A stretch of DNA of 64,000 bases from Elusimicrobiaceae bacterium. GTDB lineage: Bacteria > Elusimicrobiota > Elusimicrobia > Elusimicrobiales > Elusimicrobiaceae. Every line of letters begins with the position of its first letter. The stretch's first letter is position 1. Of the stretch, positions 1,958 through 4,348 are shown in pieces. The stretch covers positions 1 through 64,000 of the forward strand of contig JAFUJU010000009.1 in assembly GCA_017468055.1 (NCBI GenBank), in the 5' to 3' direction. A program made the position numbers and the translations under genes. The notes beneath the pieces are model-generated. The model was not told where the DNA came from, did not search any database, and saw only the letters and a program-made list of their open reading frames with translations.

Positions 1958-2902
1958 TTATAGTTTTACGTTGACCTTTAACAAACCATTCAAATACGTA
2001 AAGTCTGAACTCTTGTATTTAAAACAGTTATAGCGTCCTTCAAGACCGAGGGATACTTTTTCAGTCAGGTCAAACTCCAATCCTAATCCGGCAAAATAAA
2101 CGAATTCTTTGGTATGAGTTTTTCGAGAAAAAACGCTGTCCACACCTGTACCATAATAATGCTCTTCCACTCTCATTTTATCTTCTATGCGAGTATATCC
2201 TAAGCCAAATGGAATATATACACGGGTAGAATAGGCAGGATTTAGGTTAAGACGGCCCAACAACATCAATTTTTCTAACGAAAGGCGGGATTTTTCCTCT
2301 CCCCAACCTCCGCCTCCCAGAGAATAGTCTTCTTCCCCTTTGTCTCCACCAGACAAATGCTCATCTATTTCCAACCCCAAACCTAAACCTACATAGGAGT
2401 TTAAAAAGTAGAGCCCGGATATACCGGCATTCCACATGGCAGTCCCACTATATCTCAGTTCTTCTTGCGTAGGCCCAATACTTTTTCCTCCTTTGGTATA
2501 GGCACCGCCCCCGCCATAAACAGAAAGCAACCACTCTTCGCCTCTGATTCCCCCGCTTCCGCTTTTACCGCCACGGGTAGGCTCTTCCGACAAGTAATAG
2601 TATTTTCCGTCAATCATGACACGCTTGCCGGACATACCTTGTTTGCGTTTTTTGGCAAGGTCTTTTTTACGTTTTTCAATGGCTTGTTCTAACTTTTTTT
2701 GTTCAGCCTCTGCTTTGCGCTGTTCTTCTGCACGTATTTTTTGAGCCATGCGTGCTTTTTCTTGTGCCGTAATGAGTCGTTTTCCGGTTTTGCAATCCAC
2801 ACTGATGAGATTCATATTTTCATCAAACTCTTGGCAAATCTGAGCCGCTGCTAAAGGGCTCAAAAGCCCCCACAGCAGTACAAAAGAAATAATTTTTTTC
2901 AT
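1958..2902 (-). CDS. Exported coiled-coil plus outer-membrane beta-barrel protein
   Basis: The 314-residue product has a Sec signal peptide (MKKIISFVLLWGLLSPLAAA, then Q). Residues about 40-90 form a Lys/Glu/Ala-rich helix, probably a coiled coil. The C-terminal 190 or so residues alternate polar and aromatic residues with Gly-rich turns, as in eight-stranded opacity-type barrels (SVYGGGGAYTKGG, GISGLYFLNSYVGLGLGLEI, FVYFAGLGLEF), and end in VNVKL. The family is not identified beyond 'barrel with periplasmic coiled coil'. A strong AAGGAGGAC ribosome site precedes ATG 2902. It is the second gene of an operon, 12 bases after the lipoprotein gene, and so falls under the structured leader at 3498-3680. 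Confidence 0.8.
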   Translation of the reverse strand: MKKIISFVLLWGLLSPLAAAQICQEFDENMNLISVDCKTGKRLITAQEKARMAQKIRAEEQRKAEAEQKKLEQAIEKRKKDLAKKRKQGMSGKRVMIDGKYYYLSEEPTRGGKSGSGGIRGEEWLLSVYGGGGAYTKGGKSIGPTQEELRYSGTAMWNAGISGLYFLNSYVGLGLGLEIDEHLSGGDKGEEDYSLGGGGWGEEKSRLSLEKLMLLGRLNLNPAYSTRVYIPFGLGYTRIEDKMRVEEHYYGTGVDSVFSRKTHTKEFVYFAGLGLEFDLTEKVSLGLEGRYNCFKYKSSDFTYLNGLLKVNVKL

Positions 2903-2914
2903 TTGTCCTCCTTA

Positions 2915-3448
2915 TTACAGGCCAAATACAGAGTGAGAACTTTCTCCATCATTTTTTTGGGCTTCCGTTACCACACCATACAGTTCAAAATCTTCTTTGG
3001 CCATGGGGGAAATATTTTTTACAGATCCCTTATAACCTGTCACGATAATCTGTCTGACCTTATGAATACAATAGCCCAAAATACACCAATTGTCTTTACT
3101 GACAGAAGTATATCTGGGGGTAATAATTACATCAGCATTGGATTTAGACATAGCTTCATACAACGCACCGCGCGTACAGGCGGACGGAGCCAAGTTGCCG
3201 GCATTGCTTTGCAGTTTGGCATCATGTGTTTGACGAGCCGGCTGTTTGGTGGTAATACCAAACCAACTTTCGCATTCGGCCACCCCACTAATTTTTTCGC
3301 CCACTTCCACATCTGCTTTAAAAGCAGGTGTATTAATTTTATTCATATCATCTAATACCATACTTCCTCTGGCATTGCGATATGCCGCAGAACTGCAACC
3401 CACTAAACACACAGCCGTCAAAACCAACAAGCATAATTTTTTCATCAT
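2915..3448 (-). CDS. Lipoprotein of unknown function
   Basis: This is a 177-residue protein with a lipoprotein signal (lipobox LVGC, lipidated Cys18). The mature part holds several Cys and a region NADVIITPRYTSVSKDN, then CILGYCIHKVRQIIVTGYKG, which suggests a small beta-rich domain of the kind seen in small envelope or secretion lipoproteins. I do not recognise the family. A GAGGAG ribosome site precedes ATG 3448. It is the first gene of a two-gene minus-strand operon with the barrel protein and lies about 50 bases downstream of a candidate attenuator, so its expression may be controlled by premature termination. Confidence 0.75.
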   Translation of the reverse strand: MMKKLCLLVLTAVCLVGCSSAAYRNARGSMVLDDMNKINTPAFKADVEVGEKISGVAECESWFGITTKQPARQTHDAKLQSNAGNLAPSACTRGALYEAMSKSNADVIITPRYTSVSKDNWCILGYCIHKVRQIIVTGYKGSVKNISPMAKEDFELYGVVTEAQKNDGESSHSVFGL

Positions 3449-3497
3449 TTTTCTCCTCTTTGTCTTTGATCTGCCTTTGGAGCTGTGCGTTGGAACA

Positions 3498-3680
3498 AAT
3501 AAAAACGGCTGCTACATTTGAGCCAATTGAGGTAACCCAAATCATAACAGCCGTGGCTTCCTGTCCTCAGAAGAAGACAGGAAACACTCGGCACGCAAAC
3601 ACCCGGGTAATTAGTCCGCCTGCTGCGTGCCTAAAACGACTGTTCTTGGACCTCAATTGTGCCGCCGGTAACCGGGCAGC
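3498..3680 (-). ncRNA. Candidate riboswitch-like leader or small RNA with overlapping terminator
   Basis: Read on the minus strand, the parts come in this order. A hairpin joins 3680-3675 with 3666-3661. P1 (CAATTGAGGT, 3659-3650) pairs with 3533-3524, 10 bp. P2 (3644-3636) pairs with 3554-3546, 9 bp. P2 encloses two hairpins: GGCACGCA/TGCGTGCC (3631-3624 with 3597-3590) and TTCCTGTC/GACAGGAA (3583-3576 with 3565-3558). Together these make a closed three-way junction. The 3' strand of P2 can instead pair with CAGCCGT at 3511-3505, reinforced by 3543-3537 with 3522-3516, and a T-rich run follows (GTTTTTATTTG). That is a terminator competing with the junction. Two non-Watson-Crick positions are G-U on the minus strand but A-C on the plus strand, which supports minus-strand transcription. 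No known riboswitch class is recognised. Confidence 0.55.
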
Positions 3681-3865
3681 GCACCGCATTCTTCACACGG
3701 TTCCAAAAACAGATTCAAATTGTAGGTAAGCCTTGTTTCAGGCTTACTATTAATTACAAACCATGTAATTAATATGATTTATTATATAAAATTTTCATCT
3801 TACCCACTTTTTTCTTGGGCTTATTTTAGGTACAATATGGGTATCTTAATATTAAGAGGGAGAAT
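3681..3865. other. Intergenic spacer with two perfect hairpins between divergent genes
   Basis: GTAAGCC (3726-3732) pairs with GGCTTAC (3741-3747), and ATTAATTAC (3749-3757) pairs with GTAATTAAT (3765-3773). A minus-strand TACAAT-like box at 3724-3719 could be the -10 of the structured leader. A plus-strand TACAAT at 3831-3836 could be the -10 for the thioredoxin-like gene, although no good -35 is seen for either. Confidence 0.4.
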
Positions 3866-4348
3866 ATGAAAATTAAAGCCTTACTGTTGACGTTGTCTGT
3901 AGCCGTACTACTGGGTGCTTGTGTACAAGTTCCTCAACCGCCCCAACTCAATGTTTCTCTGCCCGTAGCCGGCGAAGAAGAAGTATGGGTGTCTGCCGAA
4001 CAAAAAGGAAAACCGGTCCTTATTGCTGTTATGGCCAGCTACTGCGGTTGGTGTAAAAAATCTTTAGCCGCTTTGGAAACAGCCAACAAAGAATTTGGTG
4101 ACAAAGTGGAAGTAGTGGGTGTATTTGTAGATAATGATGAGGCAAAAGTAAAAGACATTATCAAACAATATAACTTAGAAAGCAAAATTCTTTACAAAGG
4201 CGGTCAGACTGCTGAAGATTTGGGTGTGCAGGGCTTCCCGCATATTATGCTTTTTAACGGAAAACACAAACTAGTAAAATATTGGGGCGGTTATTCCGAT
4301 ACTTTAGCCGACCAATACCGTGCCGAACTAAGCAAACTGGTTAAATAA
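3866..4348 (+). CDS. Thioredoxin-fold lipoprotein (TlpA-like)
   Basis: This 160-residue protein has a lipoprotein signal (LLGAC, Cys19), so it should be anchored on the periplasmic side of a membrane. It has a thioredoxin fold with the redox motif C60-G-W-C63 (ASYCGWCKK) and the cis-proline loop GFPHIMLF near residue 130. Proteins of this family reduce or exchange disulfides of exported proteins or supply electrons to periplasmic reductases. The substrate cannot be told from sequence. A GAGGGAG ribosome site precedes ATG 3866, and a terminator follows, so it is a single-gene unit. Confidence 0.85.
   Translation: MKIKALLLTLSVAVLLGACVQVPQPPQLNVSLPVAGEEEVWVSAEQKGKPVLIAVMASYCGWCKKSLAALETANKEFGDKVEVVGVFVDNDEAKVKDIIKQYNLESKILYKGGQTAEDLGVQGFPHIMLFNGKHKLVKYWGGYSDTLADQYRAELSKLVK

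What the first reader, a model, noticed from the sequence alone, without database searches (positions are those of the whole stretch)
3498..3680. Unidentified riboswitch-like attenuator or structured RNA ahead of a lipoprotein/outer-membrane barrel operon
Seen directly: on the minus strand a closed three-way junction (P1 10 bp, P2 9 bp, two 8-bp hairpins) is followed by a strand (3511-3505) able to pair with the 3' side of P2 (3554-3548). The alternative hairpin is reinforced by a second 7-bp segment and ends in GTTTTTATTTG. Junction and terminator are therefore mutually exclusive, the usual logic of a transcriptional riboswitch, and the start codon of the first gene lies about 50 bases beyond. 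Two positions that are A-C mismatches on the plus strand are G-U pairs on the minus strand, in P2 and in the 5' hairpin, which points independently to this orientation. I could not match it to any riboswitch, 6S, SRP, RNase P, tmRNA or T-box consensus I know. The alternative is a free small RNA ending at this terminator.
Basis: partly seen in the sequence, partly recalled or inferred. Interest (0 to 1): 0.8.

Follow-up and report, generated by a model that had tools for sequence, protein, structure and literature searches.

The report
Multi-copy RNA switch before pilin genes
The sequence is one copy of a previously uncatalogued RNA switch that gut bacteria of the phylum Elusimicrobiota place, up to about 45 times per genome, between promoter and gene to decide whether pilin and other surface-protein genes are transcribed, and its conserved self-complementary loop suggests that these RNAs recognise each other.

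Summary
The minus-strand RNA (about 3714-3501) is one copy of an RNA family with no Rfam match. It recurs in 62 of 66 genomes of the host genus, with about 45 copies in one 1.5-Mb relative. A shorter subtype runs through the phylum, including one genome whose length fits Elusimicrobium minutum. In 180 of 191 distinct copies a co-directional gene with a ribosome-binding site follows: about half are type IV pilin-like; the rest include lipoproteins, outer-membrane proteins, glycosyltransferases and methyltransferases. Covariation supports both exclusive states. Four strands exchange partners: leader:I plus M:T3 (terminator) versus I:M (antiterminator). In about a third of copies a fifth strand before the start codon captures the freed leader. 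New finding: the tip of hairpin P3 is nearly always self-complementary (seven different 6-nt palindromes, GAUC, AGCU or GACG) with no partner in the same RNA, as in retroviral kissing-loop dimers. I infer a multi-copy transcription attenuator whose input may be RNA-RNA kissing between leader transcripts. Transcription, switching and dimerisation are untested; a small-molecule ligand remains possible.

The parts
3726..3747 (-). inverted repeat GTAAGCC..GGCTTAC just upstream of the -10-like box; candidate operator shared by a subset of copies
   Evidence: repeat AAGCC..GGCTT at nearly fixed spacing in 31 copies (22 of 57 non-pilin and 5 of 95 pilin copies of the host family, 4 copies of the other family), 0 of 185 control windows
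3719..3724 (-). -10-like box TACAAT; transcript inferred to start near 3714
   Evidence: TA[ACT]AAT in 86 of 160 copies at this place; the generic promoter scan found no sigma-70-type site here, so the start is inferred
3702..3712 (-). leader strand L, CUGUUUUUGGA; pairs with I (terminated state) or with D (read-through state)
   Evidence: compensatory changes of helix L:I, 7 of 8 pairs in subtype 2; folding path
3683..3701 (-). hairpin A
   Evidence: all 6 modelled pairs covary
3661..3680 (-). hairpin B
   Evidence: all 5 modelled pairs covary
3651..3659 (-). P1 5' arm CAAUUGAGG; sequence differs from copy to copy, pairing kept
   Evidence: all 8 pairs of the main P1 helix changed on both sides, 91% of cells paired
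3637..3650 (-). strand I, UCCAAGAACAGUCG; pairs with L or with M
3590..3631 (-). hairpin P3
   Evidence: 16 of 16 modelled pairs covary
3608..3613 (-). self-complementary P3 loop UAAUUA inside the 9-nt loop ACUAAUUAC
   Evidence: 6-nt palindrome in 16 of 17 distinct 9-11 nt P3 loops, none in the other hairpins; no partner elsewhere in the RNA
3556..3585 (-). hairpin P4
   Evidence: 11 of 11 modelled pairs covary
3536..3553 (-). strand M; pairs with I (antiterminator P2/P1b) or T3 (terminator)
3524..3532 (-). P1 3' arm CCUCAAUUG, lies in the terminator loop
3501..3522 (-). terminator 3' strand T3 (3522-3506) and U-run (3505-3501)
3469..3482 (-). strand D, CUCCAAAGGCAGAU, can pair with the freed leader L after read-through
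   Evidence: duplex -16.9 kcal/mol here; 56 of 155 copies below -12 against 1.6 in shuffles
3453..3458 (-). Shine-Dalgarno GAGGAG
   Evidence: sequence
2915..3448 (-). first controlled gene: lipoprotein, no Pfam match
1958..2902 (-). second gene: outer-membrane beta-barrel (PF13505)

Best explanation
The element is a 5' leader that acts as a transcription attenuator, one of a large paralogous family. As RNA polymerase leaves the promoter, the leader strand L pairs with I, and hairpins A, B, P3 and P4 form. When strand M and the P1 3' arm emerge, I can leave L and pair with M, with P1 closing a long helix: this is the antiterminator. If T3 then captures M, L re-pairs with I, a terminator forms and a roughly 215-nt RNA is released. 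If it does not, polymerase reads into the gene, and in about a third of copies (the window's included) strand D can capture the free leader and lock the open state just before the ribosome-binding site. Shown by sequence and covariation: the helices of both states, hence that they exclude each other, and the position before genes. Inferred: that transcripts start at L, that switching happens in cells, and the input. My preferred input is loop-loop kissing of the self-complementary P3 tip with another copy of the RNA (a nascent or released leader), so that transcript density or another copy biases the choice. My estimates: attenuator 0.9, P3 loop kisses 0.6, kissing is the regulatory input 0.35.
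For: Covariation of the terminated state: 58 of 61 pairs changed on both sides, 95.9% of cells paired, controls far lower. Covariation of antiterminated P1/P1b/P2: score 0.42 against 0.14 shuffled and 0.05-0.08 slid. L:I helix covaries in subtype 2, 98.7% paired. MFE folding versus length gives L:I, then P1+P2 at 190-205 nt, then L:I plus terminator at 210 nt, then P1+P2 with the D strand present. Lock: 56 of 155 copies against 1.6 expected. Gene placement: 180 of 191 distinct copies followed by a co-directional gene with a Shine-Dalgarno sequence, pilin starts a median 36 nt after the terminator. 62 of 66 genomes of the genus, about 45 copies in G071. P3 palindromes.
Against: No transcript data: start site, termination and read-through are inferred. 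The promoter scan found no consensus sigma-70 site and the -10-like box is present in only about half the copies. P2 itself (I:M) varies mostly on one side, so its support rests on conserved complementarity and on divergent copies. Subtype 2 lacks P3, so kissing cannot be the universal input. The GAUC class (about a fifth of copies) offers only 4 self-complementary bases in a 7-nt loop.
Confidence: 0.8

Rival explanations
1. A metabolite-binding riboswitch: the conserved unpaired bases at the P2/P3/P4 junction (UUUUA, GAGU, CCA) form a pocket for one common ligand, for example a second messenger, that tips the same ladder.
For: Junction bases are nearly invariant in all copies while stems covary; dozens of copies per genome before surface genes resemble second-messenger regulons (established knowledge of c-di-GMP riboswitches).
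Against: No Rfam riboswitch model matches at any useful score. Subtype 2 lacks the three-way junction. A ligand pocket does not explain why P3 loops are self-complementary.
Confidence: 0.35
2. The terminated 215-nt RNA is the product: a family of trans-acting small RNAs that happen to sit upstream of genes.
For: A promoter-like box and a strong terminator of its own; the P3 loop could contact other RNAs.
Against: 180 of 191 copies lie directly before a co-directional gene with a ribosome-binding site; a conserved antiterminator and a post-terminator lock strand make no sense for a free RNA.
Confidence: 0.1
3. A mobile or repetitive DNA element (MITE-like or cassette recombination site) whose folding is a by-product.
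For: Many copies, before unrelated genes; some copies look hybrid with mismatched P1 arms, e.g. L041, L150; identical P1 arms recur before unrelated genes.
Against: Helices covary across copies at about 67% identity, fixed orientation and spacing to genes; no viral contig holds the exact core pattern.
Confidence: 0.05
4. P1 arms are address codes read by a trans-acting guide RNA, giving each locus its own switch.
For: P1 arms differ in all 45 copies of G071, and identical 8-mers recur between copies 56 times against 1.5 expected, 16 of them in copies otherwise only background-similar.
Against: In 1.41 Mb of G071 the arms occur no more often elsewhere than shuffled arms (152 against 176). Shared descent of element lineages with gene conversion of the middle explains the recurrence.
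Confidence: 0.05

Closest known systems
pT181-type transcription attenuators controlled by antisense RNA (PMC4878617)
   Same: nascent leader with mutually exclusive antiterminator and intrinsic terminator; RNA-RNA contact begins as a kissing hairpin
   Different: there the partner is a separate antisense RNA on a plasmid; here the loop is self-complementary, the leaders are chromosomal, many-copied and before pilin/surface genes
Retroviral dimerisation hairpins: HIV-1 DIS and GACG tetraloops (PMC516450, PMC4066764)
   Same: palindrome in an apical loop, or a GACG tetraloop, as dimer contact; the 2+6+1 layout of the 9-nt loop resembles HIV-1 DIS (that layout from my own knowledge)
   Different: bacterial gene-control leader, no homology; dimerisation not shown here
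Metabolite and tRNA riboswitches with transcription terminators (c-di-GMP, ydaO, T-box etc.)
   Same: leader, junction, terminator/antiterminator exchange
   Different: no covariance-model match; extra leader strand L and lock strand D; ligand unknown
Guanidine-II (mini-ykkC) riboswitch
   Same: hairpin loops that kiss through a 2-nt palindrome (PMC7357161)
   Different: two small hairpins only, different loop and architecture; no Rfam match

Membership tests
Any Rfam 15 family | covariance-model score at or above gathering threshold | tested here: not met
   only a tRNA in the window; nothing meaningful at the element in the window or in 20 homologous loci at relaxed thresholds
Transcription attenuator (mechanistic class) | intrinsic terminator between promoter and gene | tested here: met
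   (promoter itself inferred)
Transcription attenuator (mechanistic class) | mutually exclusive antiterminator supported by evolution | tested here: met
   with controls
Transcription attenuator (mechanistic class) | regulated read-through in cells | not testable with these tools
   needs transcript mapping
Metabolite riboswitch | direct ligand binding changes the fold | not testable with these tools
   no ligand known
Ribosome-controlled (trp/his-type) attenuator | leader peptide ORF with start and Shine-Dalgarno inside the leader | tested here: not met
   family consensus holds no conserved Shine-Dalgarno plus start
pT181-type antisense attenuator | antisense RNA from the opposite strand | tested here: inconclusive
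   no promoter-like site on either strand of 3300-4000, but the element's own promoter was not detected either
Kissing-loop homodimer (DIS-like) | self-complementary apical loop | tested here: met
   16 of 17 distinct 9-11 nt P3 loops; P4, A and B loops none
Kissing-loop homodimer (DIS-like) | physical RNA dimer | not testable with these tools
   needs native gel or ultracentrifugation

The most novel reading that the evidence does not exclude
A bacterial regulon in which dozens of gene leaders sense each other's RNA: the released or nascent leader transcripts kiss through self-complementary P3 loops of a few compatibility classes, and this contact sets termination, giving RNA-only autoregulation or coordination of a large pilin and surface-protein repertoire.
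Probability: 0.35. Interest if true: 0.92.

Novelty: new variant of a known kind. Interest (0 to 1): 0.8.

Why it matters
No member of this family is in Rfam 15, and two searches of open-access papers for Elusimicrobia with riboswitches or structured RNA motifs found no description. It is present in nearly every genome of one gut genus and in other families of the phylum, with a copy number per genome (about 45 in 1.5 Mb) that is high for any cis-regulatory RNA. It offers a concrete, testable explanation for how these bacteria, one of which carries over a hundred pilin-like genes, choose what to express. If the palindromic loops really kiss, it would be a chromosomal example of leader RNAs that regulate by recognising copies of themselves. 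It also makes an orphan ligand or RNA-partner question directly testable in vitro with a template of under 400 bp.

Tried and rejected
Known RNA families: rejected by cmscan at gathering and relaxed thresholds. Leader-peptide attenuation: no conserved Shine-Dalgarno/start in the leader consensus. P1 arms as trans address codes: recurrence is real, but no excess of the arms elsewhere in 1.41 Mb of G071. P3 loop pairing in cis: the loop 6-mer recurs elsewhere in the same element in only 2 of 126 copies, no more than in swapped elements. Second lock type (T3 with a strand after the terminator): 43 copies below -15 kcal/mol against about 11 shuffled but about 22 when downstream regions are swapped between elements, so only weakly supported. 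Viral carriage: no exact match to the core pattern in viral contigs.

Full report
Observation. On the minus strand the interval folds far better than shuffled sequence (-88.1 kcal/mol, z -6.3; the plus strand -67.3, z -3.4). The whole-window cmscan finds only a tRNA, and relaxed scans of the interval and of 20 homologous loci find no related family.

The family. A BLAST search found two partial matches in the same genome at the spacing of a second copy, and copies in 22 of 61 genomes searched, all in one genus. A 30-sequence alignment gave 61 consensus pairs, 44 with compensatory changes. A covariance model (R1) hits 62 of 66 genomes of the genus and 88 of 295 across the phylum, confined to the host's family and one other. 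G071 has 54 raw hits, of which 45 were fetched as distinct elements and located in its sequence; the rest are opposite-strand echoes, partial end-of-contig copies or weak hits. The 32 stretches found in named genomes by an exact core pattern are Elusimicrobiota records apart from one titled only 'uncultured bacterium'.

A second subtype. Reading nearly all of G071 in stretches (1.41 Mb) showed shorter relatives before other pilin genes: leader, hairpins A and B, P1, I, M and terminator are kept, but a single hairpin replaces P3 and P4. A model of these (R2) hits 83 of 295 genomes in 20 genera, including other families. Some of those hits are subtype-1 copies found weakly by R2, which also shows the two subtypes are related. 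One genome (G117, single contig of 1,643,562 bases, which matches my recollection of E. minutum Pei191) has a copy before a zinc-ribbon gene. The own genome has two subtype-1 copies and one weak subtype-2-like copy.

What it precedes. Of 191 distinct subtype-1 search hits, 180 are followed by a co-directional gene with a Shine-Dalgarno sequence; 99 of these encode type IV pilin-like proteins, with starts a median 36 nt after the terminator; the rest, by inspection of translations, include lipoproteins, outer-membrane proteins, glycosyltransferases, DNA methyltransferase-like proteins and small unknown proteins. G071 has 113 pilin-like genes over the Pfam cut-off, and 37 of the 104 recognised by motif lie directly behind a subtype-1 element. 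In the window the genes are a lipoprotein and a beta-barrel protein.

Two exclusive states. On 101 distinct rows the terminated state has 95.9% of cells paired and 58 of 61 pairs changed on both sides (shuffled 40.0). The antiterminated helices P1, P1b and P2, which were not part of the model, have a covariation score of 0.420 (shuffled 0.137, slid 0.05-0.08), with all 8 pairs of the main P1 helix changed on both sides. In subtype 2 the leader:I helix is 98.7% paired with 7 of 8 pairs changed on both sides, P1 again covaries fully, and so do hairpins and terminator. P2 mostly varies on one side, so its support is conserved complementarity rather than covariation. MFE structures of the growing window transcript switch from L:I to P1+P2 at 190-205 nt, to L:I plus terminator at 210 nt, and back to P1+P2 once strand D is made (-112 kcal/mol). 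L:D-type complementarity occurs in 56 of 155 copies against 1.6 expected. These are equilibrium energies, not kinetics.

A self-complementary loop. The apical loop of P3 holds a 6-nt palindrome in 108 of 168 automatically folded copies (8.9 expected from shuffled loops). Of 17 distinct P3 loops of 9-11 nt, 16 contain one; P4 and hairpin A and B loops show no 6-nt palindrome. The classes are UAAUUA, UUAUAA, UCAUGA, UUCGAA, UUGCAA, UAGCUA and UCGCGA; other copies carry GAUC, AGCU or a GACG tetraloop. Copies are related by descent, so counts are not independent; the weight lies in seven different hexamers all being palindromic. The same hexamer rarely occurs elsewhere in the RNA (2 of 126; 4 of 126 in swapped controls). 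Palindromic loops and GACG tetraloops are known contacts of retroviral RNA dimers (PMC516450), and functional RNA oligomers are described as rarely observed in nature (PMC7357161). Kissing between an antisense RNA and a nascent leader drives attenuation in pT181 (PMC4878617). I therefore infer, without proof, that leader transcripts contact each other through P3. Subtype 2 does not have this hairpin, so the basic switch must work without it.

Variable P1. P1 arms differ in all 45 G071 copies, yet identical arms recur between genomes, often before unrelated genes, more than chance (56 pairs against 1.5). The arms are not enriched elsewhere in G071. I read this as old element lineages with occasional recombination; a few copies have mismatched arms.

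Limits. Nothing here shows transcription. Genomes are mostly draft MAGs. Alignments were fitted to structures from related sequences, though P1 and P2 were not modelled. Some of the 191 copies (L103-L105, L114-L116, L169, L170) belong to subtype 2. The literature library is open-access only.

Noticed in passing
window 4993 (-), 28429 (-), 42770 (-); 16 sites in G071: Promoter-like TTGACTTG-T(11-12)-GCTACAAT with a homopolymer T tract filling the -35/-10 spacer; in G071 15 of 16 such sites precede pilin genes. Candidate slipped-strand (phase-variable) promoter, though tract length is nearly constant.
   Followed up: partly
window 3726-3747 and upstream of 31 elements: Inverted repeat AAGCC-N-GGCTT at nearly fixed distance upstream of the leader, mostly before non-pilin genes; 0 of 185 control windows. 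Other copies have different inverted repeats at the same place.
   Followed up: partly
G071 genome: 113 pilin-like genes (PF07963 over cut-off) in a 1.5-Mb genome.
   Followed up: partly
L041, L150, L124, L199: Elements whose P1 arms do not match each other well; L041 and L150 look like hybrids of two elements, either recombination or assembly chimeras.
   Followed up: no
L332 (G122), L102/L116 (G193): Tandem copies of the element within about 50-70 nt of each other.
   Followed up: no
G162 contigs C8, C50, C51, C62, C65, C71, C77: Many element copies lie 130-480 nt from contig ends with the gene side cut off, as if the downstream genes were repeats that broke the assembly.
   Followed up: no
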